DNA from: Bacteroidota bacterium | Lineage (GTDB): Bacteria; Bacteroidota; Bacteroidia; Chitinophagales; Saprospiraceae | Direction: 5' to 3' | NCBI GenBank assembly: GCA_020160935.1 | Contig: JAIUPL010000005.1 | Location: 62,001 to 126,000 of the forward strand | DNA length: 64,000 nucleotides | Shown: positions 561-61,452 of the stretch, piece by piece | Layout of the letters: each line of letters starts with the position of its first letter | How positions within the stretch are numbered: position 1 is the first letter of the stretch | Notes under the pieces: model-generated | The model's input: only the letters and a program-made list of their open reading frames with translations | Told to the model about the DNA's origin: nothing | Databases searched by the model: none | Made by a program: the position numbers and the translations under genes

Positions 561-738
561 GGTGTTTTTGTGTTTTTGTGTTTTCGTGTTTTTGTGTTTT
601 TGTGGGCTTCGCTCATGGCATTTTCAAGTGAATATGCTCTGAAATCAAGTTTCCTTCCCATTCCTTTGGACAAATACCAGGAGCGAAGCACACAAAAACA
701 CAAAAACACGAAAACACAAAAACACAAAAAAAAACACC
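561..738. repeat. Palindromic word-repeat element 1 (TGTTTTTG words)
   Basis: The left arm (561-614) is made of TGTTTTTG-type words and ends in GCTTCGCTC. The right arm (681-738) begins GAGCGAAGC and continues with the complementary CACAAAAA words. About 50 bp pair with a single mismatch inside, around a 66-nt loop (615-680). The loop contains ATGGCATTTTCAAGTGAATA, resembling the loop of the element near 49.4 kb. The element lies between the tRNA and coaX and occupies nearly the whole gap. Confidence 0.9.
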
Positions 739-774
739 TCATCCCCTCCCTCCTTCCCCATCAACAATTATCCC

Positions 775-782
775 TACCTTTG
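775..782 (+). promoter_or_regulatory. coaX: -7 box (TACCTTTG) of coaX
   Basis: TACCTTTG matches TAnnTTTG and ends only 9 nt before the coaX ATG, so the transcript would be leaderless or nearly so. No clear -33 TTTG is seen at the expected distance. Confidence 0.5.
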
Positions 783-791
783 CGCCCGCAC

Positions 792-1523
792 ATGAATCTG
801 GTGATCGACATCGGCAATACGCGCAGTAAAATTGGCCTGTTTCAGGAAAATACACTGGTCGAGCAAGCGAATTGGACGGACTGGACGTTAGCAGAACTGC
901 TTCGGTACGGCAACCATAGTGGTGCAAATAACGTCTTGTTCAGCAGTGTGGCTGCTCCGAACCCTGCCCTGAAAGAAGGGCTGGAAGATCATTTTAACGT
1001 AGTGGAACTGACGCACGAAACGCCATTGCCTTTTCGCAACCTGTACCAAACCCCGCAAACGCTGGGCAAAGACAGGCTGGCAGGGGTAGCCGGCGCGCAG
1101 GCATTGTACCCGAACAGGCATTGTGTGGTGGTGGATTGTGGCACCTGCATCAAGTACGAATTACTCACAGCGAAGGCCGAATACCTGGGAGGCAACATTG
1201 CTCCGGGCGTTCGAATGCGGATTCAGGCGATGCACCATTTCACAGCGCGGCTGCCGGAAGTGCCGATGGAAATGCCGGAGCAAGCAGTGGGCGACAGTAC
1301 ACAAACAGCCCTGCAAAACGGCGCCATTCGGGGTGCCGTGCTGGAAATTGAAGGTTTTGTGCGTTTGTTCGGGCAGCAATTATCGCCCCTGCAAATCATT
1401 CTGACCGGCGGCGATGCTGCATTTTTGCTGCCTTTTTTGTCCGTAAGTAATCCCGGTATTTTGTACCAACCCGACCTGACGCTTTTTGGACTGAACCACA
1501 TTTTAAGACATCATTTTCAATAG
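792..1523 (+). CDS. coaX: Type III pantothenate kinase
   Basis: CoaX phosphorylates pantothenate, the first step of coenzyme A synthesis. The 243-residue protein has the family phosphate-binding motif DIGNTRSKIG at residues 6-15, GKDRLAG at 92-98 (pantothenate-site region) and DCGT at 115-118. The length is typical of CoaX. The ATG at 792 was chosen because it places DIGNT at the N-terminus; the longer open frame upstream runs through the palindromic element and is not credible. The next gene, an outer-membrane protein, follows after 35 bp and is probably cotranscribed. Confidence 0.95.
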   Translation: MNLVIDIGNTRSKIGLFQENTLVEQANWTDWTLAELLRYGNHSGANNVLFSSVAAPNPALKEGLEDHFNVVELTHETPLPFRNLYQTPQTLGKDRLAGVAGAQALYPNRHCVVVDCGTCIKYELLTAKAEYLGGNIAPGVRMRIQAMHHFTARLPEVPMEMPEQAVGDSTQTALQNGAIRGAVLEIEGFVRLFGQQLSPLQIILTGGDAAFLLPFLSVSNPGILYQPDLTLFGLNHILRHHFQ

Positions 1524-1558
1524 GAAAAACGACATAAGTTTTTCATTTTCAATAAATT

Positions 1559-2982
<1,424 letters not shown>

Positions 2983-3079
2983 TTTCCCCAAAGGTAGGAG
3001 GGCGGAGGAGGGAAGGGAAAAGCAGGTAACTGAAGTGCAGGATGGAGGGAGTGAAGTGTATGGAGGACTTGCTGGAAAT

Positions 3080-7222: not shown

Positions 7223-7358
7223 ATTAAAGTCCTGAGTCGTATGTCCTGAGTCCGTAGAGTACACCGCATAATCATAGCATCTCTAACCGTGAATGCCGAA
7301 AGTACCAAGGTGTACTCTACGGACTCAGGACTCAGGACTTACGACTCAGGACTTTAAT
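7223..7358. repeat. Palindromic word-repeat element 2 (GACTCAG words, GTAGAGT core)
   Basis: The left arm 7223-7265 and right arm 7309-7358 pair completely except for one extra 7-nt word (TCAGGAC) in the right arm and one adjacent mismatch. The inner core is GTAGAGTACACC / GGTGTACTCTAC around a 43-nt loop containing GAATGCC. The right arm includes the stop codon (7346-7348) and the last codons of the histidine kinase gene. It lies between that gene and the downstream repeat-protein gene. Confidence 0.93.
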
Positions 7359-8719
7359 TGAAGTGAAACAGAAAACGAACTGCCATTGCCCAAAGTAGAG
7401 CGCAGCGCAATATGTCCGTTGTGCAGTTGAATAATGCGCCGGCAGAGCGAAAGGCCGATTCCATGGCCTTTGATGGTAGACTGTACATTGCTGCTGCGGA
7501 AAAAAGGATTGAAAATCAATTCCTGTTCTTCTTCCGGGATGCCAATGCCTCGGTCGCTAAAAATCACCTCGATGGAATTTGGGAGCGAAGCCAGGCGAAT
7601 CCGGACGGCGTGGTCGGGCGAGAACTTGCAGGCATTGTCCATCAGGTTAAGAAACGCTGTTTTCAGCAGTTGTTCGTTGCCCGGAACGGTGAGTTGCGAT
7701 TCATCTTCGGGAAAAGTATCGTATTCGAGCAGGAAACGATAATCGGGATGCGATTTGCTCAGTTCGTTCTGGGCCAGAAACAGCACTTCGTCCACGCGAA
7801 CGGGCTGAAACTGAAAACGTTGTTTGTCGATACCCGACTGGGCCAGGGTAAGCAATCCATTGGTCAGTTCTACGAGTGTTTGGGTATCGTCGAGCATCGA
7901 TTGGAGCGCTTGCCGGTATTCTGCGGGAGTACGTTCTTTACCGAGGATGAGTTGCAACTGGCTGGTGATGGCGGCCAGCGGATTGCGCATTTCGTGGGAA
8001 GCGTTGCTCACGAATTGCTGCTGCACCTCGAAAGCCGATTCGAGCCTGTGCAGCATATCGTTGAAATTCATAGCCAATTGCGCAATTTCGTCGTGCCGGT
8101 TGCCTTCGTCGATGCGCTGGCTAAGGTTGCCGGCACTGATGTTCGACACCTCTGAATTGATGCGCGCCAGCGGCTGCAATACCTGTCCGGCAAAGGCGGC
8201 GCCAGCCAGAATGATGATCAGGATTCCCACCAGCAATCCCGCAATGAGCACATTGCGCAGGTTCTGGAGTTTGCTGCGACCAAAACGGTCATACGCAGAG
8301 GAAATGACCACAAAATCGCCCTGCGATCCTTTGTACACAATTCCCACATTTTCGGTATCGTTGACGGTGTATTCCACTTTTTGCTTGCTTCGAATACTTG
8401 CAAGAAGGTCGAGGGAGTAGGGTACATCCAGGTCATCGAGACTGCTGTAAATCAATTTGTTATCCGGATTGAAAATCAGCACCCGTTCCTGATACATGGC
8501 GTGTATCGAGTTGCGGTCGATGATACGCAGCATGTTCTCGTCTACTTCCCGCACTGTTACAAACAGCCTGGCCGTCGTCAGCGCTCTGCTTTCCAGCCTG
8601 GCATAAAACTCTTCTCTGCGATAATTTTCCGATGAAAAATACACCGACAGCGAGAAAGCCAGCAGGATAGTGGCTACGATGGCTGTAAATAGCAGGGTGA
8701 GTTTGGTGCGAATGTTCAT
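7346..8719 (-). CDS. Sensor histidine kinase (HAMP, HisKA, HATPase)
   Basis: This 457-residue membrane kinase has two transmembrane segments (about residues 7-28 and 156-178) around a 125-residue periplasmic sensor region and a HAMP linker (about 180-232). The phosphoacceptor is His242 in SHEMRNPLAA. ATP-binding boxes are N362 in NLMDNACKFSP, DRGIGIP (389-395) and GHGIGLSL (418-425). All catalytic residues are present. Its ATG overlaps the stop codon of the upstream response-regulator gene (ATGA), so the pair is translationally coupled, with an arrangement like CusS/CusR. The signal sensed is not evident. The last residues and the stop are encoded by the flanking palindromic element. Confidence 0.93.
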   Translation of the reverse strand: MNIRTKLTLLFTAIVATILLAFSLSVYFSSENYRREEFYARLESRALTTARLFVTVREVDENMLRIIDRNSIHAMYQERVLIFNPDNKLIYSSLDDLDVPYSLDLLASIRSKQKVEYTVNDTENVGIVYKGSQGDFVVISSAYDRFGRSKLQNLRNVLIAGLLVGILIIILAGAAFAGQVLQPLARINSEVSNISAGNLSQRIDEGNRHDEIAQLAMNFNDMLHRLESAFEVQQQFVSNASHEMRNPLAAITSQLQLILGKERTPAEYRQALQSMLDDTQTLVELTNGLLTLAQSGIDKQRFQFQPVRVDEVLFLAQNELSKSHPDYRFLLEYDTFPEDESQLTVPGNEQLLKTAFLNLMDNACKFSPDHAVRIRLASLPNSIEVIFSDRGIGIPEEEQELIFNPFFRSSNVQSTIKGHGIGLSLCRRIIQLHNGHIALRSTLGNGSSFSVSLQLKS

Positions 8720-16969: not shown

Positions 16970-16974
16970 ACACT

Positions 16975-17260
16975 GCAACACGGATTGCGCGGATTAAATG
17001 CGGATTACACGGAAGGCATTCCGATAGGGGCTGATTTCTGCAACACGGAGAAACACGGATTGCACGGAGAAGACGGATTTACACGGATAGCATTCCTGTT
17101 AAAGGAACTATCTCTTCATCGGAATGCCATCCGTGTAAATCTGCAACACGGATTACACAGAAGTTGCGGATTTCACGGATAGTATTCCTGTTAAAGGAAC
17201 TATCTCTTCATCGGAATGCTATCCGTGAAATCCGCATTCAATCCGTGTAATCCGTGTTTC
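16975..17260. repeat. Nested palindromic element 3 with two tandem hairpins (CACGGAT words)
   Basis: It fills the gap between two convergent genes. The outer arms are AACACGGATT-type words near 16978-17007 and their complement at 17230-17260. Inside are two near-identical hairpins. One pairs 17076-17096 with 17121-17141. The other pairs 17166-17188 with 17213-17235 perfectly over 23 bp. Both have the same 24-nt loop (TGTTAAAGGAACTATCTCTT plus CATC). The stop codon of the minus-strand gene touches the right arm. Confidence 0.93.
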
Positions 17261-17915
17261 AGAGGAGCCGCCCAATATGCAGCCCAAACATCATATCCGG
17301 TGTTGCATAGTAGTCTTCGTTCAGGGTAAAATCAAAAAAACCACGCTGCCTTACCCGTACGGCATCCGGTGGCGCCGCTCCTGGATAATTTTGTATCCAG
17401 CGCACGCCAAATCCCAAAAAGGGCTCGATGAGCCAACGTTTGTTCTTGCCCCAAAAATGAATGCCGCCAAACTGTACGGAAACACCGCCGGATATCTGGC
17501 GACGCCTGAGCAACAGCCATTCTTCATATTGCCCGCCTTGCCGCGTTGTACGATAATAGCGCCGATTGTATATGTCGCTGAATTTCAGCACAATACCCAC
17601 ATATCGGCGATCCAGTACATATGGCCGCAGGTAGTATTTAAAAATCGGCCTCAGTTTGTATCCAAGAAATGTTTCTCCGGTATACTGCGAAAAAATACTC
17701 GAATGAAATACGAAAGCAGCCCCTGCATCGAGCCCCCAGCGCCTACCGAGCGGGATGTCTGACTGCAGGGTGAGCGACTGCTGAACAATGTTGATCAACC
17801 CTGTTGGGGCGATTTTCAGGGAATAGGGCATGTGTCGCCTGTCGGAACTGTCGGGATTCGACTGTGCATGCAAATACAGGGGCAACACGGCCCAAAACAG
17901 GAGGGCGAAACGCAT
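17259..17915 (-). CDS. Probable small outer-membrane beta-barrel protein
   Basis: The 218-residue protein has a signal peptide (MRFALLFWAVLPLYLHAQ) and a body of short amphipathic strands rich in Tyr, Arg and Gly (for example FLGYKLRPIFKYYLRPYVL), ending MFGLHIGRLL. This is compatible with an 8- to 10-strand barrel resembling DUF3575-type proteins. Its start abuts the stop of the LVIVD lipoprotein gene, so it is the last gene of a three-gene unit with two lipoproteins, and the products may act together at the outer membrane. The function is unknown. Confidence 0.65.
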   Translation of the reverse strand: MRFALLFWAVLPLYLHAQSNPDSSDRRHMPYSLKIAPTGLINIVQQSLTLQSDIPLGRRWGLDAGAAFVFHSSIFSQYTGETFLGYKLRPIFKYYLRPYVLDRRYVGIVLKFSDIYNRRYYRTTRQGGQYEEWLLLRRRQISGGVSVQFGGIHFWGKNKRWLIEPFLGFGVRWIQNYPGAAPPDAVRVRQRGFFDFTLNEDYYATPDMMFGLHIGRLL

Positions 17916-20617: not shown

Positions 20618-20650
20618 ATTGTGGGTAAACTGGTGTAATCGGAATCGGTT

Positions 20651-24555: not shown

Positions 24556-24765
24556 ATTTTTTGTTATCAGTTATCTGTTATCAGGGTGGTGAAGGAGGCT
24601 TTCACGCTTCGTGTTTGATTGGTTATCGGTTATCAGTTATTGGTTATCAGGGTGGTAAGGAGCCATCTACACAAATGTTTGTTACTCATATTTATGTAGC
24701 CATGCAATTGTCTAGATGGCTCCTTACCACCCTGATAACCAATAACTGATAACCGATAACCAATC
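24556..24765. repeat. Palindromic word-repeat element 4 (TTATCAG words), inside an operon
   Basis: Arms at 24617-24669 and 24713-24765 pair perfectly over 53 bp around a 43-nt loop. The arm reads TTGGTTATCGG-type words, then AGGGTGGTAAGGAGCC. A second, unpaired copy of the words plus AGGGTGGTGAAGG precedes it at 24561-24600. The element fills the whole gap between two permease genes of the same operon and runs into the stop codon at 24764-24766. Confidence 0.95.
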
Positions 24766-26011
24766 ACGCCCTCAGCGCCTCCACAATCGGCAATTTCGAC
24801 ATGCGCCAGGCAGGCAGTACGCCCGACATCAATCCGAATACCAGGCTCAGTACGATGGTAATGATGACGACCGTCCAGTTGATGGTCAGGTCAGCATAAT
24901 CGATGAAATGGCTGTTGTTGAACCACCACAGGATGCCCGCGGAAATGAGCAAAGCCAGCGCTCCGCCTATCAGCGTAATCAGAATGTTTTCGAGCACAAA
25001 CTGGTACACCAGCGTCTGGGCAGAAGCGCCGAAAGACTTGCGAATACCGATTTCCGACGAGCGTTCGAGAATGCGGCTGACGTTGATATTGACCAGATTG
25101 ATGGCTGGCAGCGACATAAAAAACAGCGCAAATAAAATGGCAATGGTGAAAAAACGCTGCTGCGCTTTCCCTTCCTCAGCCCCCAGCAGCCCGCCCATGG
25201 AGATGCTTTCAAAATAGGGCAGCAGGCTGGTTTTCAGCACTTGTGGTTTGAAATCGCCGTATTGCTGCAGCGGAATCCTGCGCACCACATCATCAAATTC
25301 GGCTTGCATTGCAGCCACCTCCTGCTCGCTTTTCGCCACAACAATGGCCTGGAAGGGGCCATTGAATGAAGTGCTGGTTGGGTCGCCTTTTTGCAGTAAA
25401 TAAGGCATGTACACATCTGCCGACACCATCAAGCGCGTAATGGGGCTTCCGCGTACCACCCCGATAACGCGCAGGTTTTGACCATTGATTTCAATGGTTT
25501 TGCCCACTGCCGATACGTCTTTGCCAAAATAATCGTCGCGTGTCTGGTCGTTGATGACCACCACGGCTTCATTGCGGTCAAAATTCTGCTGCGTAATGGC
25601 CTGGCCTTCCAGAAAATCGAACGCGAGGATTTCCCAGAAAACCGGGTCGGTGTATTTGAAATAGAGTTTGAGTTTTTTCCCGTTTCCATAGGTGTTCACC
25701 GTATTGGGCGTGGAACTGAACCCCACTTTTTCGGGCGTTTTGAGCGTACTGATGTACTGTTTGATGAAATAAACACTCATGGGCCCCCGACGGGTAGCGT
25801 CGGTAGTCGTATCTATTTCTTCGATCATGGAAGAGAACAGCGAGCGATTGCGGTACACTTCCGGGTATTTCCCGCCAAACATGTGTTCGTAAAATGCCGT
25901 GAGCACGATCAGGATCGTCAGTGTCATGCAAATGCCGAACAGGCTGATGAAGGTAAAAAACTTGCGCCGCCGCATCACGGCCAGCGTGATTTTCAGATAG
26001 TTGGATAGCAT
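24764..26011 (-). CDS. MacB-like ABC transporter permease (first copy)
   Basis: The 415-residue permease has the same architecture as its downstream neighbour: an N-terminal helix (about 18-40), a periplasmic MacB_PCD domain (about 45-270) and three C-terminal helices with NVSRILERSSEIGIRKSFGAS. The two permeases are only distantly similar and likely form a heterodimer. It begins 3 bp after the ATPase gene, so the two are cotranslated. The substrate is unknown; relatives export peptides, lipoproteins or antimicrobial compounds. Confidence 0.9.
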   Translation of the reverse strand: MLSNYLKITLAVMRRRKFFTFISLFGICMTLTILIVLTAFYEHMFGGKYPEVYRNRSLFSSMIEEIDTTTDATRRGPMSVYFIKQYISTLKTPEKVGFSSTPNTVNTYGNGKKLKLYFKYTDPVFWEILAFDFLEGQAITQQNFDRNEAVVVINDQTRDDYFGKDVSAVGKTIEINGQNLRVIGVVRGSPITRLMVSADVYMPYLLQKGDPTSTSFNGPFQAIVVAKSEQEVAAMQAEFDDVVRRIPLQQYGDFKPQVLKTSLLPYFESISMGGLLGAEEGKAQQRFFTIAILFALFFMSLPAINLVNINVSRILERSSEIGIRKSFGASAQTLVYQFVLENILITLIGGALALLISAGILWWFNNSHFIDYADLTINWTVVIITIVLSLVFGLMSGVLPAWRMSKLPIVEALRA

Positions 26012-26701: not shown

Positions 26702-26720
26702 AGATGGAGGAGTGATGAGA

Positions 26721-26826
26721 TATGAGTTATGAGTGATGAGTTATGATGCTGTACTCATGGCTTTTTTTATTAGAGTGGCCAATAGCAAAGTGAGTAAAAC
26801 TCATAACTCATCACTCATAACTCATA
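26721..26826. repeat. Palindromic word-repeat element 5 (TGAGTTA words), inside an operon
   Basis: Arms 26721-26746 and 26801-26826 pair perfectly over 26 bp and consist of TATGAGTTATGAGTGATGAG words. The inner part holds GATGCTGTACTCATGGC, similar to the cores at 54.9 and 55.8 kb. The element fills the gap between the TolC-like and ATPase genes of the exporter operon and starts directly after the TolC stop codon. Confidence 0.93.
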
Positions 26827-26830
26827 CCTC

Positions 26831-32215: not shown

Positions 32216-32403
32216 GTTATTTGTTATTGGTTATTAAGTTATTAGGGTTGGTAAGGGTACATTGACATGTATGTTTTGCCGCTCTAAAGTGCGCACTTTG
32301 ACTTTTTATTTATCAGGAACTCGTACCCCATTTGAGTTGCCAAACTTCTACACCAATGTACCCCTACCACCCCTAATAACTTAATAACAAATAACTTAAT
32401 AAC
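32216..32403. repeat. Palindromic word-repeat element 6 (TTATTGG words)
   Basis: Left arm 32216-32264 and right arm 32354-32403 pair imperfectly over about 49 bp (several mismatches and G-U pairs). Words such as GTTATTGGTTATTAAG lead into the core AGGGTTGGTAAGGGTACATTG. The element runs from 2 bp after one stop codon to 6 bp before the next start codon. Confidence 0.92.
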
Positions 32404-35261: not shown

Positions 35262-35462
35262 GGTTTTTCTGCAGAGTAATTTTATGTAGAGTAGTTTCCG
35301 TAGAGTAGGTTCCCGCAGAGTAGTTTCCCGCAGAACTCGCAGATTTACCCGCAGAACTCGCAGAATGTAGAGTACACCTATTTCTTCAAAGCGATATTTA
35401 TGTGTACTCTACATTCTGCGAGTTCTGCGGGTAAATCTGCGAGTTCTGCGGGAAACTACTCT
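35262..35462. repeat. Palindromic word-repeat element 7 (CGCAGAACT words, GTAGAGT core)
   Basis: Arms 35317-35377 and 35402-35462 pair perfectly over 61 bp around a 24-nt loop. The arm alternates CCCGCAGAACTCGCAG words and ends in GTAGAGTACAC, the core also seen at 7.2 kb. To its left, 35262-35316 has extra GTAGAGTAGGTT-type words without a partner. The element lies between the SH3-domain protein gene and the GH32 gene. Confidence 0.96.
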
Positions 35463-35491
35463 ACGGAAAAATCTGCTGCAAGAAACCTGAT

Positions 35492-41170: not shown

Positions 41171-41188
41171 GCAATGAGTGGCTATTTT

Positions 41189-44761: not shown

Positions 44762-47185
44762 ATGTCAAGCATGAGCGATTATTTTTTCAAACGGTTGATC
44801 GTGGTTGTAGTGGCCCTGGTGGCTGCACAGACCATACAGGCCCAACTGGACTCCATCCACTGGATACCGCCCATGCATGCCCGTTCGGAATGGGGGCCGC
44901 AATACCTGTACATTTCAACACCCGAAACCACGCCATTTCCCGTGGAGGTTCGCACCGGCCAGGGCGCGGTTGTGACCACGCTGACTGTGTCGAATACGCA
45001 ACCGCAGCGTTTCAGCCTGGGCTCTACCGACGATACCTATACACTCGTGCCCGACAACGATTTGCATAAACCTTTGCAAGACAAAGGGTTGATCCTCGTA
45101 GGCCCTCAAAAATTTTATGTCAATTTCAGGGCGCACAGCAGTTCGCAGTATCAGGCTTGCGACCTTACCTGCAAAGGCCGCGCTGCACTGGGAAAAGTTT
45201 TTCGTATCGGGCACCTCATTCAGGGCAGCAGCAGCAGTCCGAGCCGATCCAACTTTGTCGGGGTCATGGCTACCGAAGACAGCACGCTCGTGACGCTTTC
45301 CGGCTATGATCCTTCGGTAAAATTTCGCATCAATGGCGTCGATACCGGCGTTCCGGGCTCTGTGCAAATCACCCTGCAGGCTGGCGAATCGGCCGTGGTT
45401 TCGCAGTACATTTCCAGCAGTTTTATCCAGCAGCCGCCCAACGGGCTCATCGGCGCCCTGCTGGAAAGCACCAAGCCAATTGCGGTGGATGTGGGCTCGT
45501 GGACGGGCGCGCCTGTGAATGACAATGCTAATGATGTGGGCATCGACCAGATTGTGCCCTACGAACTGGTAGGGGAGGAATACATTTTATGCAAGGGAAA
45601 TGGCTCCAGCATCCTGGAAATTCCAATTGTAGTGGCGCACGAAAATGGCACGAGCGTTTTTCTGAACGGCAGCACCACTCCTGCCGCCGTGCTGAACGCG
45701 GGGCAATTTTACCAGGTACCCACCACGATGTACACTGCGGCGGGCAATTTGTATATCCTGTGCTCCAAACCCGCTTTTTTGTACCAGATGGTGGGTGGAA
45801 CGCCTACTGGCGACGACCAGAAACGTACCGCCGGGCTGATTTTTGTGCCGCCTATTTCCTGCAGCATCCCCAATGCGGTGGATAATATTTACCAGCCCAA
45901 TCAAATCGGGGTGGTCAAATACGACGGTGGTCTGATGATCGTAGCCATGAAAGATTCAGTTGTGACCCTGCGCATCGACGGCAATGTGGTGCCCCTCGGT
46001 ACGCCCGACCCGGTGCAGGGCAATCCCGATTTTGTGACCTATCGCCGACTTACACTGTTTCAGGCAAATAATCCACCCGAAACGGCCAGTGTCATCGCAC
46101 AGGGCGCCATTCAGGTGGCGTTGTTTGGCCGCAATGGCGCGGCAGGTTTCGGCGGATTTTACAGCGGTTTCAGTAAAACCAAAAAGCCGGATATCAGCCT
46201 GGGCATCATTGGCGACGGCGTTTGCCCCGATACGCTGGTGGCCAGTGGAAATTTCGATGGGGTACAATGGTACCACGCCGATTCGTTGCTGCAATACGGC
46301 GCTGATACCATGTATATCGCCTATTCTCCAGGTGTTTACACTGCGCGCGGTTACCTCGGCGTTTGCCGCCGCACCGACTATGCCGAAGACGATGTAACAG
46401 CCAGTTTTAACTCGCCCGAATTTCCCTACACGGTGGAAGAACCTTCCTGTTATGGTTTTTCCGATGGTCAAATTATGTTCGGAATGCCAACGGGAGGGCT
46501 CGAACCTTATGAATATTCGGTAGACAACGGCGCTCATTTTTTTGATTCGCCATTGGCCGAAAACCTCCGCGCCGGGCAATACAAACTCATTGTGCGGGAT
46601 TCTACCGGCTGCTACAACAGTCCGCTGGAAACCACCATCGGACAGCCCGATAGCCTGGGCGTCGATCTGGTATTTGCCTACATTCAGGAGCCTGTGAAAG
46701 TGGGCGACCGGGTCGTTCTGGAGGCGCAACCTGATCGCGAGGTCGTTCTACACGCCTGGTCGCCGGGCGATACCACTACCTGCGGTCAATGCTCGCGCCT
46801 GACCGTCCGGCCCGAAGAAACGACCTGGTACACGGTCACTGTAACTGACCCGATGGGCTGTACCGCCACCGCCCGCATTCAGGTGATTCTGGAGCCCAAT
46901 ATTTATGTGCCGAACGTTATTTCTGCCGCATCCCAACTGGGCAATGATCGTTTTACCCTGTTCAGCAAAGAGCCACAGCCGATCAACTGGCTGCGCATTT
47001 ATGATCGTTGGGGCAATCTGGTGTTCGAGCGCACCCACATTGTCACCAATGATCTTTCCGAAGGCTGGGATGGCACTTTCCAGGGCCGTGAAGTCAACCC
47101 CGGCGTGTTCGTTTTTGTAGCAGAAGTGCAATACGCGCCGGGCAGGAAATTGGTGTTTAAGGGGGATGTGAGCGTCTTAAGATAG
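44762..47185 (+). CDS. IgGFc-binding-like T9SS cargo with gliding-type C-terminal domain
   Basis: The protein (807 residues from the ATG at 44762; other nearby ATGs are possible) has an N-terminal signal segment ending TIQAQ. An IgGFc-binding-like domain of about 350 residues follows (with RSNFVGVMATEDSTLVTLSG and AVVSQYISSSF), then beta-sandwich domains with a SprB-repeat-like segment (PSCYGFSDGQIMFGMPTGG). A type B T9SS / gliding-motility-associated sorting domain is at the end (NIYVPNVISA, WLRIYDRWGNLVFE, WDGTFQGREVNPGVFVF). It is probably a surface adhesin. The stop is followed at once by a palindromic element. Confidence 0.85.
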   Translation: MSSMSDYFFKRLIVVVVALVAAQTIQAQLDSIHWIPPMHARSEWGPQYLYISTPETTPFPVEVRTGQGAVVTTLTVSNTQPQRFSLGSTDDTYTLVPDNDLHKPLQDKGLILVGPQKFYVNFRAHSSSQYQACDLTCKGRAALGKVFRIGHLIQGSSSSPSRSNFVGVMATEDSTLVTLSGYDPSVKFRINGVDTGVPGSVQITLQAGESAVVSQYISSSFIQQPPNGLIGALLESTKPIAVDVGSWTGAPVNDNANDVGIDQIVPYELVGEEYILCKGNGSSILEIPIVVAHENGTSVFLNGSTTPAAVLNAGQFYQVPTTMYTAAGNLYILCSKPAFLYQMVGGTPTGDDQKRTAGLIFVPPISCSIPNAVDNIYQPNQIGVVKYDGGLMIVAMKDSVVTLRIDGNVVPLGTPDPVQGNPDFVTYRRLTLFQANNPPETASVIAQGAIQVALFGRNGAAGFGGFYSGFSKTKKPDISLGIIGDGVCPDTLVASGNFDGVQWYHADSLLQYGADTMYIAYSPGVYTARGYLGVCRRTDYAEDDVTASFNSPEFPYTVEEPSCYGFSDGQIMFGMPTGGLEPYEYSVDNGAHFFDSPLAENLRAGQYKLIVRDSTGCYNSPLETTIGQPDSLGVDLVFAYIQEPVKVGDRVVLEAQPDREVVLHAWSPGDTTTCGQCSRLTVRPEETTWYTVTVTDPMGCTATARIQVILEPNIYVPNVISAASQLGNDRFTLFSKEPQPINWLRIYDRWGNLVFERTHIVTNDLSEGWDGTFQGREVNPGVFVFVAEVQYAPGRKLVFKGDVSVLR

Positions 47186-47379
47186 AGCGTGAGAGAGTGA
47201 GAGATGTGAGAGCGTGAGAGATGTGAGAGGGTGAGAGATGTGAGAGGGTGAGAATACGTAGAGTAGACCGGCTCCGTGCTGAAAATGCCGAGTGCGGAGC
47301 GGTCTACTCTACGTATTCTCACTCTCTCACCCTCTCACATCTCTCACGCTCTCACATCTCTCACTCTCTCACCCTCTCA
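47186..47379. repeat. Palindromic word-repeat element 8 (GTGAGAG words, GTAGAGT core)
   Basis: It lies between two convergent genes and fills the gap. The inner arms 47248-47270 and 47300-47322 pair perfectly over 23 bp, including GTAGAGTAGACCG, around a loop with GAAAATGCCGAG. Outward, GAGATGTGAGAGCGTGAG words on the left align with their complement on the right for about 60 bp more, with word slippage. The right end contains the stop codon and penultimate codons of the glycosyltransferase gene. Confidence 0.95.
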
Positions 47380-48638: not shown

Positions 48639-48909
<271 letters not shown>

Positions 48910-49351: not shown

Positions 49352-49471
49352 AGTCCTAAGTCGTGAGTCCTAAGTCTGTAGAGTGGACCGCGTTGCTAAT
49401 GGCATTCATGCAAGTGAATACTAATAGCAACGCGGTCCACTCTACAGACTTAGGACTCACGACTTAGGACT
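49352..49471. repeat. Palindromic word-repeat element 10 (AGTCCTAAGTC words, GTAGAGT core)
   Basis: Arms 49352-49398 and 49425-49471 pair perfectly over 47 bp around a 26-nt loop. The arm reads AGTCCTAAGTCGTGAGTCC, then GTAGAGTGGACCGCGTTGCTA. The loop contains ATGGCATTCATGCAAGTG, similar to the loop of element 1 at 0.6 kb. The two flanking genes are convergent and the element fills the space between their stops. Confidence 0.96.
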
Positions 49472-50067: not shown

Positions 50068-50325
50068 GTTATTGGTTATTGGTTATTAGTTATTGGTTAT
50101 TAGGGTAGGTAAGGGATGATAGGTTTTTCAGGCCTGCGGCTCGGGGAACTTGAGAGGTTGAGAAGTTGAGTGGTTGAGATTCAATTACTGTTGTGATACA
50201 AAATCTGTTGAGTGGCTGCATCTCAACCCCTCAACCCCTCAACATCTCAACTTCCCCGAGCCGCCGGCCTGAAAAACCCATCATCCCTTACCTACCCTAA
50301 TAACCAATAACCAATAACCAATAAC
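50068..50325. repeat. Composite palindromic element 11 (TTATTGG outer, TTGAGGGG inner)
   Basis: The outer arms pair GTTATTGGTTATTGG words, then AGGGTAGGTAAGGGATGAT and TTTTTCAGGCC, then GCGGCTCGGGGAA, with their complements ending at 50325. A second vocabulary, TTGAGAGGTTGAGAAG, fills the middle. It therefore combines two word types nested in one structure. The stop codon of ruvX (50330-50332) lies just outside the right arm. Confidence 0.94.
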
Positions 50326-50329
50326 TAAA

Positions 50330-50746
50330 CTACCAATAGTTTGCTTCCATATACTGCTCCAAAATCAGGGCGGCAGCAATTTTGTCGACCAGCGCCTTGT
50401 CGCGACGTTTTTGTTTTTTGACGCCGCTTTGAAGAATGATGCGTTTGGCCTCGTTGGAAGTGTACCGCTCGTCTTGCCGTACTACCGGCTGAGCGGGAAA
50501 TTTTTTTTGAAGTTGTTCAGCAAAACGATCGGCCTGATCGGCTATTTGGGCCGGGTTTCCGTCCGGATAGAGTGGCAACCCGACTACAAAACATTCAACC
50601 TCTTCTGCTGAACAGTATTTTTCCAGGAACTCCATCGCTTCGGCCGTCGGAACCGTCGTCAGGCCGCTGGCAATAATTTTCAGCGGGTCCGTGACGGCGA
50701 TTCCGGTGCGTTTCGTGCCGAAGTCAATAGCAAGAATTCGGCCCAT
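50330..50746 (-). CDS. ruvX: Holliday junction resolvase-like RuvX (YqgF)
   Basis: The 138-residue protein opens MGRILAIDFGTKRTGIAVTD, the RNase H-like fold with the catalytic Asp. Then come VVGLPLYPDGNPAQIADQ and VVRQDERYTSNEAKR, and a C-terminal Asp in DKALVDKIAAALILEQY. YqgF proteins act in ribosomal RNA processing and possibly recombination. Its ATG overlaps the stop of the DUF2723 gene by one base, so the two are translationally coupled, an order I recall as conserved in some Bacteroidota. Confidence 0.93.
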   Translation of the reverse strand: MGRILAIDFGTKRTGIAVTDPLKIIASGLTTVPTAEAMEFLEKYCSAEEVECFVVGLPLYPDGNPAQIADQADRFAEQLQKKFPAQPVVRQDERYTSNEAKRIILQSGVKKQKRRDKALVDKIAAALILEQYMEANYW

Positions 50747-53870: not shown

Positions 53871-54090
53871 AGAGAAGTGAGAGCGTGAGAGAAGTGAGAG
53901 CGTGAGAGAGTGAGAGCGTGAGAGAAGTGAGAGCGTGAGAGGTGTGAGAGCGTGAGAGTTCGTAGAGTAGACCGCTCCGTGCTAAAAATGCCAAGCGCAG
54001 AGCGGTCTACTCTACGAACTCTCACATCTCTCACGCTCTCACACCTCTCACGCTCTCACATCTCTCACTCTCTCACGCTCTCACATCTCT
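53871..54090. repeat. Palindromic word-repeat element 12 (GTGAGAG words, GTAGAGT core)
   Basis: The inner arms 53952-53977 and 54000-54025 pair perfectly over 26 bp, including GTAGAGTAGACCGCTC, around a 22-nt loop with AAAATGCC. Outward both sides continue in GAGAGCGTGAGAG words and their complement with slippage. It occupies the gap after the OmpH/Skp stop codon, nearly identical in core to the elements at 47.2 and 48.7 kb. Confidence 0.95.
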
Positions 54091-54883: not shown

Positions 54884-55053
54884 GGAGTTATGAGTTATGA
54901 GTGATGAGTTGTGGTGCTGTACACCTGGCATGGTAGATTGAGTGACTAAAGGTTGTTGCCTCAACCTCTCAACCCTCAACATCTCAACCTCCTCAACAAT
55001 GCCAGGAGTACAGCACCACAACTCATAATTCATCACTCATAACTCATAACTCC
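54884..55053. repeat. Palindromic word-repeat element 13 (GAGTTATGAG words)
   Basis: Left arm 54884-54931 and right arm 54999-55053 pair apart from one extra AATTATG word on the right and single mismatches. The arm is GGAGTTATGAGTTATGAGTG, then GGTGCTGTACACCTGGCAT. The loop carries TCAACCTCTCAACC words. It is unusual in lying between two divergent genes rather than after a stop codon. Confidence 0.94.
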
Positions 55054-55088: not shown

Positions 55089-55751
55089 ATGAAACAAATT
55101 CTTGCGTTCTCCCTCTTTTTTATCGCTTTTTGCGCGGTTGGCCACGCTCAGGAAACGCCTGTCATTGACAAATCGACTCCGGTGCAACTTTCGGGTATTA
55201 TTGTGGCGGAAGTAGACGGCCGCCGTACCACTGTGCCGTATGCTACCGTGTATTTGCCGGAAAAACGCAGGGGCACGTACTCTGATTACCGCGGTTTTTT
55301 TACCATCGTGGTAGAATCGGGCGATAAAGTGCGCTTCAATTGCATCGGCTTCAAACCCGTTACCATTACCATTCCCGATACGCTCACGCAGGAACGATAT
55401 TCTATCATCCAGATCATGTCACAGGATACGATCAACCTGCCCATGACGATGATTTACCCCTGGCCCTCCAAGGAGCATTTTAAAGTGGAATTCCTGAAAA
55501 TGGATGTGACGCCCGAACTTCAACGCCGCGCTACCGAAAACCTGGCCAACGAATACCTCACCGAAGCACGCAAAAACCCTGATATTGTGCCGTATGGCGG
55601 TCGGGAAAGCGCTAACTTCTACCTGCGCCAGCAATCCCGCGAATATGTGTACCTGGGCCAGACACCGCCCATGAATATTTTCAGCCCGCTCGCCTGGGGC
55701 CAGTTTTTTAAGGCGTGGAAGGATGGGGATTTTAAGAAGAAGAAAGAATGA
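55089..55751 (+). CDS. Secreted carboxypeptidase-regulatory-like protein
   Basis: The 220-residue protein has a signal peptide (MKQILAFSLFFIAFCAVGHA) and a CarboxypepD_reg-like beta-sandwich with VQLSGIIVAEVDGRRTTVPY, YLPEKRRGTYSDYRGFFTIV and FNCIGFKPVTITIP. It has an additional C-terminal region of about 90 residues with a lysine-rich end (KAWKDGDFKKKKE). It is not a TonB receptor because no plug or barrel follows. Such proteins occur widely in Bacteroidota with unknown function. Confidence 0.78.
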   Translation: MKQILAFSLFFIAFCAVGHAQETPVIDKSTPVQLSGIIVAEVDGRRTTVPYATVYLPEKRRGTYSDYRGFFTIVVESGDKVRFNCIGFKPVTITIPDTLTQERYSIIQIMSQDTINLPMTMIYPWPSKEHFKVEFLKMDVTPELQRRATENLANEYLTEARKNPDIVPYGGRESANFYLRQQSREYVYLGQTPPMNIFSPLAWGQFFKAWKDGDFKKKKE

Positions 55752-55753
55752 TA

Positions 55754-55901
55754 GGTGGTGAGTAGTGAGTGGTGAGTAGTGAGTGGTGAGTTATGGTATT
55801 GTGCTATTGGCTTTGTCAGTAGATTGACCAAGAGTACAACACTATAACTCACCACTCACTACTCACCACTCACCACTCACCACTCACCACTCACCACTCA
55901 C
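55754..55901. repeat. Palindromic word-repeat element 14 (GGTGAGTAGTGA words)
   Basis: Left arm 55754-55805 of GGTGAGTAGTGAGTGGTGAG words pairs with complementary words at 55832-55901, the right arm being longer by several CACTCACC units. The inner part reads GGTATTGTGCTATTGGC, like the cores at 26.7 and 54.9 kb. It separates two convergent genes, and the MlaF-like gene takes its stop codon TGA from the element. Confidence 0.94.
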
Positions 55902-57345: not shown

Positions 57346-57348
57346 GAC

Positions 57349-58547: not shown

Positions 58548-58937
58548 ATGCGCCACTCACTTCTACCCCTCTTTTTGTTCCTTTCCGTCTTTGCCTGCCG
58601 GAAAGCGCCCGACACGATTCCTTTGCCCACCAAAATTTGTGTGCAAACCTCCCACCATTATTACCCCATTCCCAATGCAACGGTGTATGTGAAATTCAAT
58701 GCCGATTCTTTCCCGGGCTACCAACAGCCGCCTTCCTACTACGATGCCACCTTCAGAACCGGCGCCGATGCGCGCGGCTGCATCGAAGCGGTACCGGAAG
58801 GCACGCACTGGCTCGTGGCATTCGGGTACGACAGCATTCATTACCCGCACAATGTGTTTGGAAGTATAAAACTGGAGGTATCGTTGAAAGACCGGCCGGT
58901 AAGGGATACGATGTTGTTTGTGTCGGAGCAGCATTAG
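58548..58937 (+). CDS. Small lipoprotein with Ig-like domain
   Basis: The 129-residue lipoprotein has lipobox VFAC (Cys17) and a compact beta-sandwich with KICVQTSHHYYPIPNATVYV, DARGCIEAVPEGTHWLVAFG and IKLEVSLKDRPVRD, recalling a carboxypeptidase-regulatory-like or Ig fold. There is no known catalytic motif. It ends at TAG 58935-58937, which overlaps the first bases of a perfect palindrome flanking the RAYT gene. Confidence 0.7.
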   Translation: MRHSLLPLFLFLSVFACRKAPDTIPLPTKICVQTSHHYYPIPNATVYVKFNADSFPGYQQPPSYYDATFRTGADARGCIEAVPEGTHWLVAFGYDSIHYPHNVFGSIKLEVSLKDRPVRDTMLFVSEQH

Positions 58938-59031
58938 TGGTGGCATGGGAATTTGATTCCAAATGCGCTAAAAAAATTTTCAACTGAAAATTTTTTTAGC
59001 GCATTTGGAATCAAATTCCCATGCCACCACT
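58936..59031. repeat. Perfect 46-bp palindrome, RAYT-flanking copy A
   Basis: The arms 58936-58981 and 58986-59031 are perfectly complementary around the tetraloop AACT. The outer part TGGTGGCATGGGAA and the inner AGCGCT / TTTTTTTAGCG region are shared with the copy at 59665-59758, with variable positions between. It is followed by ACGCTACCACAA, also shared. The left end overlaps a stop codon. Confidence 0.98.
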
Positions 59032-59034
59032 ACG

Positions 59035-59634
59035 CTACCACAACTTCTTCACTACCTCAGTCGCCAATTCCTTTTCCAACAACCCTCCCAATTCCTTCTG
59101 TTCCAATCCCAACAATTCCATCGCCAAAGCGATATTGCACAAAGTGCCTGACCGAAGCCCGGCGAAATCCCGATAGGCAGAAAACTCCCAGTCTTCCGGT
59201 CGAACAACGAGCCCTGCCTTTTGTGGATTTTGCAGGATGTACAGAAAACACCACAAGGTGTAATCCTCCCAACTCCATTCGCTACTTACCCGCTTTGCTT
59301 TAGTGTTTTGTGTAAACAATGATCCTGTGAAATGCTCTTGCTTTTGTAGCGCCCGGGTGTATCGGGTGAGTAGTTGTTGGGTGCCTCGGGAAAATTGTGT
59401 CCAACGCACAGGGCCATCCTGGTTGCCATAAGGTAAAACCGTTTTTTCATGGGTTCGGATAAGGAAGTGGAAGTGATTGGGCATCAGGCAATAACAAAGA
59501 ATATCGCAGCAGGGAAGCCAGTATTGCCGAACTTTTTGAAGAAAGAAGAGGTAATTGTCGCGTGTGAAAAAAATGCGTTGGCGCTGGTTACCACGGTTAT
59601 ACACGTGGTAGATTTGGTTTGGATAAAGTTGCAT
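59035..59634 (-). CDS. REP-associated tyrosine transposase (RAYT, TnpA_REP)
   Basis: The 199-residue protein is a Y1 HUH nuclease of the RAYT type. It has the opening YHVYNRGNQRQRIFF, the HUH motif MPNHFHFLI near residue 51-59, the candidate nucleophile Tyr in LLTRYTRALQK, and YILQNPQKAGLVVRPEDWEF then SAYRDFAG, all in family order. RAYTs generate or maintain REP palindromes. The start at 59634 gives MQLYPNQIYHVYNRG; an extra 41 codons upstream belong to the palindrome. Both flanks carry a perfect palindrome, and its stop codon lies in the shared 12-bp tail. It is a single gene with no other transposase. Confidence 0.92.
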   Translation of the reverse strand: MQLYPNQIYHVYNRGNQRQRIFFTRDNYLFFLQKVRQYWLPCCDILCYCLMPNHFHFLIRTHEKTVLPYGNQDGPVRWTQFSRGTQQLLTRYTRALQKQEHFTGSLFTQNTKAKRVSSEWSWEDYTLWCFLYILQNPQKAGLVVRPEDWEFSAYRDFAGLRSGTLCNIALAMELLGLEQKELGGLLEKELATEVVKKLW

Positions 59635-59664
59635 AAATGAAGTTTGGATGATGAGAGGAAACTT

Positions 59665-59758
59665 AGTGGTGGCATGGGAAATCGAATATAAATCGCTAAA
59701 AATATTTTCGACTGAAAATATTTTTAGCGATTTATATTCGATTTCCCATGCCACCACT
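59665..59758. repeat. Perfect 45-bp palindrome, RAYT-flanking copy B
   Basis: The arms 59665-59709 and 59714-59758 are perfectly complementary around GACT. The outer TGGTGGCATGGGAA and inner TTTTTAGCG modules match copy A at 58936-59031, while the middle (ATCGAATATAAATCGC) differs. It is followed by ACGCTACCACAA, which leads into the stop codon of the O-antigen-ligase-like gene. Confidence 0.98.
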
Positions 59759-59772
59759 ACGCTACCACAAAC

Positions 59773-61215
59773 TTACTCCTCTCCCCCCAAATTCACCAGC
59801 ATCGCTACCGACATAAAAAACAGCGAACCAATCTTGTCCGTCTCCACAAAATCGTTCATCAGCATGAGCATGTCGATGAGGATAAAGCACATCAGCGCGG
59901 CGATGGCCATGCGGCGGCGCCAGCCGGGCTGGAGACGGTGGTACACGCGCTCGCCGTAGAGCATGACGAGCACCGAAAAAAGAATAAAGACGACCATTCC
60001 CGGCAAGCCCTGTTCCACAGCAGTCATCAGGTAATAGTTGTGGATACCTGAGCGTTCGGGGTTGTCGCTCACATAGGTTTTAAAACTCGACACCGTGTAT
60101 TTGGTGTAGTAGAAATAGAAATTGCCGGGGCCGAAACCTGTCCAGGGGTGTTCCTTGATCATGTACGTGGCTGCTACCCAGCGATACACGCGTTCCATGG
60201 TTGAAATATCTTCGAGTTTTGTGGTCGCTTCCAGCAGGTTGTCGAAGCGCTGGTGGGTAATGGCGCGTTCGTAGTCGGGCGCAAATTCCAGCCAGTTGTC
60301 GCTGGATGCCACGAAACTGATAAAAATACCCAGCACCACGGCAAAGCCCAGCAGGGCCATTTTCATCAATCGCCAGCGCATAATCCAGTAGATACCAATA
60401 GCGGCTACCAGGGCCACATAGGCTGCACGGGTGTAGGCAAAATTGATGGCCACCAGCAGAAACACGATGGTCAGCACCAGAAACCACCAGATGCCGCTCC
60501 AGCGTTTGTACCAATACGTGGCATACCACACAAATGGCAGAAAAATAGCCAGCAGACAAGCATACATCACGTGGTTGCGGAAAAAAGGCCCCATCACGTA
60601 CGCCACATCCTGAAAGGAAAAGTTGATGGCCGCGTGCCGCACAAAAACCGAAATAACCGCAATGAGCAACGGAATCAAAAACCACCAGAAAAAGGCCTTG
60701 AAATCGCGCTCTGTGCGCAACAAGTGTGCGGCCAGAAAATAAAATACAATGACGTACCAACCCTTGGCAAGGAAATATTTTACCGACACATACACGTCCT
60801 GAGAAGTCACCACACTCACAGCAATCCAGCACAAATGCAGCAACAGCGCCAGCGTGAGGGGGTGCCGCAAAAAACGCCCGTCTACCTTCGGAGCATTGCG
60901 TAAAAACCAGCCGATGCCGCACAAGGTGAGCAGCCACATCAGTTGTTCCGAAGGCAGGTCGGTGGCAAAGCCGCCCGGCAATTCCTGCTCCATCGACAGC
61001 GGCAGGGCTGCCAGTAAGAGGAAAAAGATGCGTTTGAAATCGACGACAGTGAGCCACAACAACGCCAGGCCCAGCGGAATGCCCATCAACCACCACATCT
61101 GAAAACCAATACCTGCCCAGATCGACGCCACCCCCAATACCGCCAGCACGCCGAACAACAGGCGCTGCGGGTGTTGGGCGGGGATGCCGAGTAGGGAGGA
61201 AAGGCGGTTTAGCAT
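59773..61215 (-). CDS. O-antigen ligase/polymerase-like membrane protein
   Basis: The 480-residue protein has about 12 transmembrane helices and the Wzy_C/WaaL-type loop with KEHPWTGFGPGNFYFYYTKY, then GIHNYYLMTAVEQGLPGMVV. It would ligate or polymerise a polysaccharide on the periplasmic face. It is encoded after a Wzz-like gene in the same direction, with a repeat element between, suggesting a small surface-polysaccharide unit. The exact reaction cannot be told from sequence. Confidence 0.82.
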   Translation of the reverse strand: MLNRLSSLLGIPAQHPQRLLFGVLAVLGVASIWAGIGFQMWWLMGIPLGLALLWLTVVDFKRIFFLLLAALPLSMEQELPGGFATDLPSEQLMWLLTLCGIGWFLRNAPKVDGRFLRHPLTLALLLHLCWIAVSVVTSQDVYVSVKYFLAKGWYVIVFYFLAAHLLRTERDFKAFFWWFLIPLLIAVISVFVRHAAINFSFQDVAYVMGPFFRNHVMYACLLAIFLPFVWYATYWYKRWSGIWWFLVLTIVFLLVAINFAYTRAAYVALVAAIGIYWIMRWRLMKMALLGFAVVLGIFISFVASSDNWLEFAPDYERAITHQRFDNLLEATTKLEDISTMERVYRWVAATYMIKEHPWTGFGPGNFYFYYTKYTVSSFKTYVSDNPERSGIHNYYLMTAVEQGLPGMVVFILFSVLVMLYGERVYHRLQPGWRRRMAIAALMCFILIDMLMLMNDFVETDKIGSLFFMSVAMLVNLGGEE

Positions 61216-61243
61216 GATGTTAGTTTATTTTGAAAAGACAACG

Positions 61244-61452
61244 AGCAAGGGGCAACGAGCAAGAGGCAAGGGGCAAGGGGCAATTAGCAAGGGGCAAGGG
61301 GCAAAGGGCAAGGGGCAAGAGGCAAGGGGCAAGAGGCAATGAGCAAAAGGCAAAAAGTAGGTGGCACTTTGGGTATTTGCCTCTTGCCCCTTGCCCCTTG
61401 CTCTTTGCCCCTTGCCCCTTGCTAATTGCCCCTTGCTCTTTGCTCATTGCCT
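61244..61452. repeat. Palindromic word-repeat element 15 (GGGGCAA words)
   Basis: Left arm 61244-61353 of GGCAAGGGGCAAGAG and GGGCAATTAGCAAGG words pairs with the complement at 61377-61452, with slippage of whole words. The long loop is AGTAGGTGGCACTTTGGG. The right arm includes the Wzz-like stop codon and its last residues KRQ. It fills the gap between the Wzz-like and ligase genes. Confidence 0.94.

What the first reader, a model, noticed from the sequence alone, without database searches (positions are those of the whole stretch)
561..61452. Stop-codon-anchored palindromic word-repeat elements fill many gene gaps
Seventeen two-armed elements and about six one-armed relatives lie in the window. 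Each arm is a run of short words of about 7-10 nt, and the words change from locus to locus. All but a few of the two-armed elements abut or overlap a stop codon, and many fill the whole gap between two genes. They occur in convergent gaps and between co-directional genes, sometimes inside operons, so they are not ordinary terminators. Canonical terminators exist separately at five sites. This looks like an undescribed REP/BIME-like system that targets gene ends.
Basis: partly seen in the sequence, partly recalled or inferred. Interest (0 to 1): 0.82.

Follow-up and report, generated by a model that had tools for sequence, protein, structure and literature searches.

The report
Swappable DNA hairpins at gene ends
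This bacterium carries an estimated thousand long DNA hairpins made of short repeated words, mostly just behind its genes, and related species often keep a hairpin at the same place while replacing it with a completely different one.

Summary
The window (a Saprospiraceae genome, Bacteroidota) has 17 two-armed hairpins and six one-armed arrays; 15 of 17 lie within 25 nt of a stop codon. In 1.50 Mb of the genome I found 261, filling 18% of intergenic DNA. About half of convergent gaps (95 of 196) carry one; in co-directional gaps they hug the upstream stop.

Words fall into families (18 signatures). Against a relative (89% identical at one gene), 26 of 117 junctions are occupied in both genomes (14 expected), yet by my reading 8 of the 26 hold unrelated families. 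One window junction has a hairpin in all five species compared, of four word families. Some hairpins sit inside the loop of another.

On the sense strand GT and AC mismatches are equal (153:158; tRNA control 21:0), so pairing seems kept at DNA level, not by selection on mRNA.

Best reading: REP/BIME-like mobile palindromes that enter resident hairpins and keep their arms alike by DNA copying. A RAYT-like transposase in the window is flanked by two hairpins, but no mover was found for the word families. New variant of a known kind.

The parts
565..730 (.). hairpin, GTGTTTTT words, core GGCTTCGCTCATGGCAT; follows a tRNA, not a stop codon
7223..7358 (.). hairpin with GGACTCA words, overlapping the stop of 7346..8719(-)
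16973..17262 (.). compound hairpin, CGGATT words, fills the convergent gap 16969/17259
24616..24766 (.). hairpin, GGTTATCAG words (one strand contains TAACTGA), overlaps stop at 24764
26717..26830 (.). hairpin, GAGTTAT words, abuts stop at 26831
32223..32395 (.). hairpin, GGTTATTA words, 9 nt after stop at 32214
35310..35469 (.). hairpin, CCGCAGAACTCGCAGA words with inner GTAGAGTACACC
47184..47377 (.). hairpin, GAGAGNGTGAGAG words, fills convergent gap; in relative G043 the same gap holds a GGATTAGAAGGATT hairpin
48643..48798 (.). hairpin, GAGAGNGTGAGAG words, 4 nt after the stop of a 35-codon ORF
49352..49471 (.). hairpin, AGTCCTAAGTC words, inner GTAGAGTGGACC; G043 keeps the outer words but has a different inner stem
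50072..50328 (.). nested element: GGTTGAG hairpin inside a GGTTATTGG hairpin; G043 and G016 have the outer words with other inner stems, G006 another family
53902..54084 (.). hairpin, GAGAGNGTGAGAG words, inner GTAGAGTAGACCG
54885..55045 (.). hairpin in a divergent gap (exception to the stop rule), GAGTTATGAG words, CTCAACC array in the loop
55755..55883 (.). hairpin, GTGAGTAGTGAG words, fills convergent gap 55751/55898; four word families at this junction in five species
58935..59032 (.). TAGTGGTGGCATGGGA-family hairpin, one flank of the RAYT-like gene
59035..59757 (-). ORF of a RAYT-like Y1 transposase (family match from residue 46), flanked on both sides by hairpins of one family; unit absent at this junction in G043 and G016
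   Evidence: absence:
59664..59759 (.). TAGTGGTGGCATGGGA-family hairpin, other flank of the RAYT-like gene
61266..61443 (.). hairpin, GGCAAGAGGCAAG words, abuts stop at 61444; no hairpin at this junction in G043 (18-bp gap) or G016 (11-bp gap)
2884..2982 (.). one-armed array of 14 TGAATGA words overlapping the stop of 1559..2890(+)

Best explanation
These are non-autonomous, REP/BIME-like mobile DNA palindromes that live behind genes and turn over in place. Each family has its own word arms and inner stem. SHOWN: high copy number in families; stop-side placement; site occupancy shared between species beyond chance while the family at the site often differs; hairpins nested in the loops of other hairpins; arms within an element more alike than the same arm between species; no sign that pairing is held by selection on RNA. 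INFERRED: (1) when a palindrome is single-stranded in replication it extrudes a hairpin whose loop is the preferred entry site for another palindrome, carried in by an HUH/RAYT-type single-strand transposase or by break repair; (2) the outer, older arms erode by deletion, leaving remnants and one-armed arrays, so a junction keeps a hairpin but not the same one; (3) template switching between arms (quasipalindrome correction) and slippage among the repeated words keep the arms complementary while their sequence drifts fast; (4) elements pile up behind stop codons because entry there harms neither reading frames nor the next gene's leader, and many first words themselves supply stop codons.
For: Families and counts: 261 elements in 1.50 Mb. 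Placement. Occupancy shared: 26 of 117 junctions occupied in both own genome and G043, class-stratified permutation mean 14.4, maximum 22 of 20000. Identity exchanged: 8 of the 26 hold unrelated families (my reading), with arm identity between species 0.658 against 0.666 for random 40-mers but 0.956 between the arms of each element. Unshared occupants coincide at 8 junctions against 2.4 expected; reached in 0 of 20000 permutations in one run and 4 of 20000 in another. Leaving out the one doubtful swap gives 7 against 1.9 (3 of 20000); leaving out also the two swaps with visible remnants gives 5 against 1.6 (96 of 20000). One junction, five species, four families. Nesting: 17 nested pairs, 8 clear ones with outer and inner of different families by my reading; expected nested share from loop and gap lengths 0.21, binomial p about 0.0007 for 8 nested against 4 side by side. 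Newcomers flanked by remnants of the resident's words in G043 and G006. DNA-level upkeep: same-family pairs 0.938 within against 0.838 between species over 14 junctions; sense-strand GT 153 against AC 158 in 133 co-directional elements, 133:138 for those within 60 nt of the stop, tRNA control 21:0. Mobility partner for some families: Y1-type transposase genes beside their own palindromes.
Against: No transposase was found that is linked to the abundant word families; the RAYT-like genes go with compact palindromes. No target-site duplication or clean insertion joint was established. Flank complementarity around the sharply bounded GGATTAGAAGGATT family was only suggestive (mean 6.83 of 12 against 5.44 in controls, none of 6 reaching 9). 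Tolerance differs between junctions within a class, which alone would raise coincidence. The swap and nesting lists were made partly by eye. Some nested combinations recur (GGTTATTGG with GGTTGAG; CGGATT with TTTGTGNCC), so they are not all independent events. In convergent gaps alone shared occupancy is close to what class frequency gives (15 both, 1 and 2 one-sided, 5 neither).
Confidence: 0.6

Rival explanations
1. They are bidirectional transcription terminators or mRNA 3'-end protectors: each gene end needs a strong RNA hairpin, any sequence will do, so occupancy is conserved while sequence is free to change.
For: Occupancy is shared and identity often is not; highest density in convergent gaps, 95 of 196; T-tailed terminators are rare, at 11 of 630 tested junctions, so something else must end transcripts; PMC12306157 cites work that REPs within 15 nt of a stop stall ribosomes (passage seen).
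Against: RNA selection should tolerate G-U and penalise A-C on the sense strand; the ratio is 153:158 while tRNAs give 21:0. T-tailed terminators are equally rare with and without an element (0 of 131 and 5 of 303 co-directional, 3 of 95 and 3 of 101 convergent), so no division of labour shows. 101 of 196 convergent and 546 of 677 co-directional junctions lack an element. No Rfam family matches in the window except a tRNA.
Confidence: 0.2
2. Ordinary REP/BIME/REPIN families, each moved by its own RAYT; the word families simply had RAYTs that are lost or lie in unread parts of the genome.
For: Five Y1-type transposase genes in the genome: three RAYT-like by protein search (C21, C24, C43) and two PF01797 matches (C42, IS200-type by its score; C29, not classified further). 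Each has a palindrome nearby: on both sides at C21, C24 and C29, on one side at C43 and C42. GTAG begins the inner module of three word families, and GTAGAGT is in 90 of 261 elements.
Against: Elements are 65-413 bp, median 143, with word-repeat arms, rather than 20-40 bp units; no Y1-type gene was found next to a word family, although one family (AGTCCTGAGTC) has 39 copies in a quarter of the genome.
Confidence: 0.3
3. Purely mutational: word arrays grow by slippage and are mirrored by template switching at any tolerant intergenic site; no mobility is involved.
For: One-armed arrays exist and the GAGTTATGAG word occurs as a one-armed array in a cyanobacterial plasmid; concerted arms.
Against: The same inner modules recur at many unlinked loci (GTAGAGT in 90 of 261 elements; one 251-bp element has at least 19 matching places in the genome, where scoring stopped at 19), which slippage at separate sites cannot make.
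Confidence: 0.08
4. Assembly artefact.
For: The genome is a draft in 51 contigs.
Against: Elements lie inside long syntenic contigs in separate genomes of several species, with flanking genes conserved to within a few nucleotides of the arms.
Confidence: 0.01

Closest known systems
REP / BIME / REPIN elements with RAYT (TnpA-REP) transposases
   Same: High-copy palindromes behind genes, mostly between unidirectional and convergent ORFs; dimers and mosaics; RAYT genes flanked by palindromes; known also from Bacteroidetes with 'atypical secondary structures' (PMC3733652 abstract and section 16; PMC6006769 passages).
   Different: Arms are runs of 7-10 nt words, elements are 65-413 bp (median 143), families replace each other at one junction, and no cognate RAYT was found for the word families.
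RAYTs with long terminal inverted repeats ('TIRtrons', PMC3733652 section 16)
   Same: The RAYT-like gene at 59035-59757 with a hairpin of one family on each side resembles this layout.
   Different: Here each flank is itself a nearly perfect hairpin of 96-98 bp; the paper mentions some partly or wholly self-complementary TIRs, so this may be a matter of degree.
Intergenic heptamer word repeats (TAACTGA repeats, PMC4679880; GGGNATC repeats, PMC4692102)
   Same: Short words of about 7 nt in many intergenic copies in Cyanobacteria and, for TAACTGA, some Bacteroidetes; some words here contain TAACTGA; GGGNATC repeats are also reported near stop codons on the sense strand.
   Different: Those are described as direct repeats, in Beggiatoa mostly just before start codons; here arrays are paired into hairpins, mostly behind stop codons.
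Quasipalindrome correction by template switching (PMC8794818 abstract; PMC8604942 search listing)
   Same: Homogenises inverted-repeat arms at DNA level, as inferred here.
   Different: A mutational process, not an element; it does not explain family exchange.
IS elements that insert into REPs (PMC1525189, search listing only)
   Same: Palindromes as preferred targets for insertion.
   Different: Here the incoming element is itself a palindrome without a gene.

Membership tests
REP/BIME | high-copy palindromic repeat in intergenic DNA | tested here: met
   261 in 1.50 Mb, 259 in gaps
REP/BIME | preference for unidirectional and convergent gaps, near gene ends | tested here: met
   co 131 of 677, convergent 95 of 196, divergent 28 of 191 junctions; stop-side bias
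REP/BIME | unit of 20-40 bp with GTAG or CGTC tag | tested here: inconclusive
   elements are 65-413 bp; GTAGAGT is in 90 of 261, but families such as GGTTGATGAG or GGCAAGAGG lack a GTAG-tagged core; CGTC was not tested
REP/BIME | cognate RAYT flanked by the same repeat | tested here: inconclusive
   met for the TAGTGGTGGCATGGGA family and for compact palindromes at C24 and C29, one-sided at C43; not found for the word families
RAYT (window 59035-59757) | HUH motif and Y1 transposase homology over the curated cut-off | tested here: inconclusive
   NHFH and YILQNP are in the translation; NCBIfam REP_Tyr_transpos E 1.2e-12 over 8-146 of 146 but 47.9 bits against a cut-off of 80; Pfam Y1_Tnp E 0.0047, below cut-off
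MITE | terminal inverted repeats plus target-site duplication | tested here: inconclusive
   inverted repeats met; no target-site duplication recognised by eye at junctions empty in G043
Intrinsic terminator | hairpin followed by a T run | tested here: not met
   0 of 131 co-directional and 3 of 95 convergent occupied junctions have one by my strict test
Selected mRNA hairpin | G-U tolerated over A-C on the sense strand | tested here: not met
   153:158; control tRNAs 21:0
Known RNA family | match to a curated Rfam model | tested here: not met
   only a tRNA in the window at gathering scores

The most novel reading that the evidence does not exclude
A class of gene-free mobile palindromes that home into the loops of other palindromes. 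Junctions behind genes act as lasting hairpin sockets, inherited by descent, whose occupant is exchanged between unrelated families, with arms rewritten at DNA level; the mover is a single-strand (HUH) transposase acting in trans or the cell's own palindrome-break repair.
Probability: 0.35. Interest if true: 0.8.

Novelty: new variant of a known kind. Interest (0 to 1): 0.64.

Why it matters
Nearly a fifth of the intergenic DNA read here is hairpin, and its evolution separates position (shared between species) from sequence (exchanged). That makes it possible to test how REP-like palindromes spread, why they sit behind stop codons, and whether stem conservation must mean RNA function: here paired change in stems arises without an RNA signature. 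Covariation searches for structured RNAs in such genomes could be misled.

Tried and rejected
Universal apex motif: TTGGC..GCCAA and near variants are enriched (47 of 261 against 4% of 5000 random intergenic 90-mers) and shared by several word families, but absent from others, so it is not a universal recognition site.

Stop codons built into the words: the 5' arm has more stop trinucleotides than the 3' arm in 173 of 261 elements, fewer in 54, equal in 34; by family 12 of 18. Striking per element, not convincing per family.

Loss of the palindrome nuclease SbcCD as the reason for palindrome richness: no SbcD match in the own genome, but palindrome-rich kin G043, G016, G006 and G047 have one, all below the family's cut-off, so not the explanation.

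Cross-phylum spread: the GAGTTATGAG element matches one cyanobacterial and five Serratia or Rahnella plasmids weakly, the cyanobacterial one being a one-armed array; four other elements had no plasmid match, perhaps because of the low-complexity filter.

Flank palindromes around the GGATTAGAAGGATT family: inconclusive (6 elements scored, 4 with unclear ends dropped). Of the 17 nested pairs, 7 were set aside as same-family word slippage and 2 as having short or unclear outer arms; the RAYT unit was left out of the 5 side-by-side junctions. The p values were computed for 8 of 12 and 9 of 13. One search compares 22 of the 26 doubly occupied junctions; the 4 with shared outer words and different insides were left out. 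The first-look counts include both strands of a palindrome.
Full report
WHERE IT IS. The window is bases 62001-126000 of contig 21 of a 5.84 Mb, 51-contig genome, 97.9% complete. Its relatives, found with the DUF2723 protein at 50746-53805, are mostly Saprospiraceae MAGs, so it belongs to Bacteroidota. I fetched 1.50 Mb of the genome and called 1081 genes with a hexamer-based caller of my own, coding fraction 0.845. Starts from this caller are approximate; small genes can be missed.

THE OBSERVATION. Seventeen hairpins score 22 or more in the window, and none of score 14 or more appeared in the one shuffle that ran. Fifteen of 17 lie within 25 nt of a stop codon (plus the small ORF ending just before 48643, read). 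Six one-armed word arrays are present. In 1.50 Mb there are 261 hairpins of score 28 or more, 174 per Mb, taking 18.4% of the bases between called genes. 259 of 261 lie in gaps: 133 co-directional, 98 convergent, 28 divergent. Occupied junctions are 131 of 677, 95 of 196 and 28 of 191. In co-directional gaps they sit at the upstream stop more than uniform placement predicts: 107 of 133 are nearer the stop (control maximum 86), 78 are within 20 nt of it (control maximum 58), and only 21 are within 20 nt of the next start.

WHAT THEY ARE MADE OF. Word families recur across the genome. Examples are AGTCCTGAGTC (39 copies), GAGAGNGTGAGAG (25), GGGTTGATGAG (22), GAGTTATGAG (18), CCGCAGAACTCGCAGA (15), GGTTATYAG (13), GTGTTTTGGTG (13), GGCAAGAGGCAAG (11) and CGGATT (11). 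Signatures sorted 228 of 261; 33 stayed unsorted. Each family tends to have its own inner module. Three share GTAGAGTNNAC inside different outer words; GTAGAGT is in 90 of 261 elements; a TTGGC..GCCAA apex recurs in several families. So the elements are modular, outer words by inner stem.

TURNOVER IN PLACE. A relative, G043, has 89% identical DNA at the DUF2723 gene and is colinear with 98 kb of the contig in blocks of 83-91% identity. Over 117 orthologous junctions, 26 are occupied in both, 7 only here, 5 only there and 79 in neither; permutation within junction classes gives 14.4 in both, maximum 22 of 20000. Most of that excess comes from co-directional and divergent gaps; convergent gaps are so often occupied that sharing there is near expectation (15 both, 3 one-sided, 5 neither). 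Reading the 26 pairs: 14 are of the same family, 4 keep the outer words but differ in what lies inside, and 8 are unrelated, one of them (C21:156552) doubtful because both genomes share some word sequence beside it. For those 8 the arms of the two species are no more alike than random sequence (0.658 against 0.666), while arms within each element are 0.956 identical. Unrelated or one-sided occupants coincide at 8 junctions where 2.4 are expected (0 and 4 of 20000 permutations in two runs); without the doubtful case 7 against 1.9, and without the two remnant-bearing cases as well 5 against 1.6, reached in 96 of 20000. Several one-sided cases still show a remnant arm or a weaker hairpin in the other genome (for example C51:98841 and C51:107737), so complete gain or loss is rarer than the counts suggest. 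The clearest case is window 55751-55898. All five species compared have one hairpin in a gap of 130-150 bp between the same two genes, but the words are GTGAGTAGTGAG here, GAGTCCTGAGTC in G043, GGTTATTAGTTATC in G016, and GAGTTATAAGTGATGAG-type in G047 and G006.

NESTING. In G043 at C51:142807 a GGATTAGAAGGATT hairpin lies between leftover GAGAGGTGAGAG arms of the family that fills this junction in the own genome. At C43:163670 the own genome has a TTTGTGGCC hairpin inside a CGGATT hairpin that is plain in G043. In the 1.50 Mb, 17 nested pairs were found, 8 clear ones with different families outside and inside, against 5 junctions with separate hairpins side by side, one of which is the RAYT unit. 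From loop and gap lengths about 21% nesting is expected. The window element 50072-50328 is such a nest.

DNA OR RNA. If an RNA hairpin were selected, sense-strand G-U mismatches should outnumber A-C. In 133 co-directional elements they are 153 and 158, and 133 and 138 in those close to the stop, whereas 20 tRNAs give 21 and 0. In same-family orthologous pairs, arms are more alike within an element (0.938) than between species (0.838; 14 junctions), the usual mark of concerted evolution. Template switching is a known mechanism for this (PMC8794818, abstract seen; PMC8604942, search listing). Terminators with a T run are rare everywhere, 11 of 630 junctions, so a role in ending transcripts is not excluded; it just does not seem to be what keeps the stems paired.

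MOVERS. The ORF at 59035-59757 is RAYT-like (match to REP_Tyr_transpos over model positions 8-146 of 146 at E 1.2e-12, below its curated cut-off) and has a hairpin of one family on each side. G043 and G016 lack the unit at this junction; G047, held also as L128, has hairpins of the same outer sequence at both places with different inner stems. Other RAYT-like genes at C24:40776 and C43:31416 lie beside compact palindromes of their own, on both sides and on one side. A PF01797 match at C29:2332 lies between two GTTGGCGAGGACGCCAAC palindrome pairs, and an IS200-type gene at C42:24808 has a palindrome on one side. I saw no word family beside any of the five. A second pair of the TAGTGGTGGCATGGGA family flanks a dihydrofolate-reductase-like ORF instead (function named from its look, not searched).

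PHYLOGENETIC RANGE. Of 80 DUF2723 neighbourhoods, 10 contain a hairpin of score 28 or more. So the word families are lineage-specific.

LITERATURE. REPs behind genes and RAYTs with TIRs: PMC3733652 (abstract, section 16). RAYT subclasses of Bacteroidetes with atypical structures: PMC6006769 (passages). TAACTGA heptamers in Bacteroidetes and Cyanobacteria: PMC4679880 (abstract, section 10). Heptamer G-rich repeats: PMC4692102 (abstract and outline). REPs near stops: PMC12306157 (passages). Survey of inverted repeats: PMC10434271 (passages). IS into REPs and REPINs: PMC1525189 and PMC3116915 (search listing). I saw no paper in the listings that reports exchange of hairpin families at one junction; the library holds only openly licensed papers, and most of those listed were not opened.

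VERDICT. The interpretation 'REP/BIME-like' is fair for kind and partly met for membership. The new part is the socket behaviour: shared position, exchanged identity, DNA-level upkeep.

Noticed in passing
window 59035-59757: RAYT-like transposase gene flanked on both sides by nearly perfect hairpins; the unit is missing at the same junction in G043 and G016.
   Followed up: yes
G000 C29:2105-3045 (L245): A Y1_Tnp match lies between two GTTGGCGAGGACGCCAAC palindrome pairs, a second transposase-palindrome unit of REPtron type.
   Followed up: partly
G000 C7:30118-30208 and C7:30816-30908 (L022): A second pair of the window's RAYT-flanking hairpin family flanks a dihydrofolate-reductase-like ORF rather than a transposase.
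   Followed up: partly
own genome, SbcD search: No SbcD match at E 0.001, although 38 of the 42 genomes searched have one (5 over the cut-off); could be a gap in the draft.
   Followed up: partly
window 2884-2982: Fourteen TGAATGA words in tandem, starting at the stop of the gene 1559-2890; the word itself carries TGA.
   Followed up: no
L217 about 3001-3053 (Kovacikia minuta plasmid pA): One-armed CTCATAACTCATAACTC array just before an ATG, the same word as a hairpin family here, in a cyanobacterium.
   Followed up: partly
L121:4223-4754: A 149-nt-armed hairpin of GGTCATTTGGAGTCATTT words in a MAG titled Chitinophagales bacterium, a word family not seen in the window.
   Followed up: no
window 41188-41249 and 20650-20736: One-armed CTCTCAC arrays, perhaps decayed GAGAGNGTGAGAG hairpins.
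   Followed up: no
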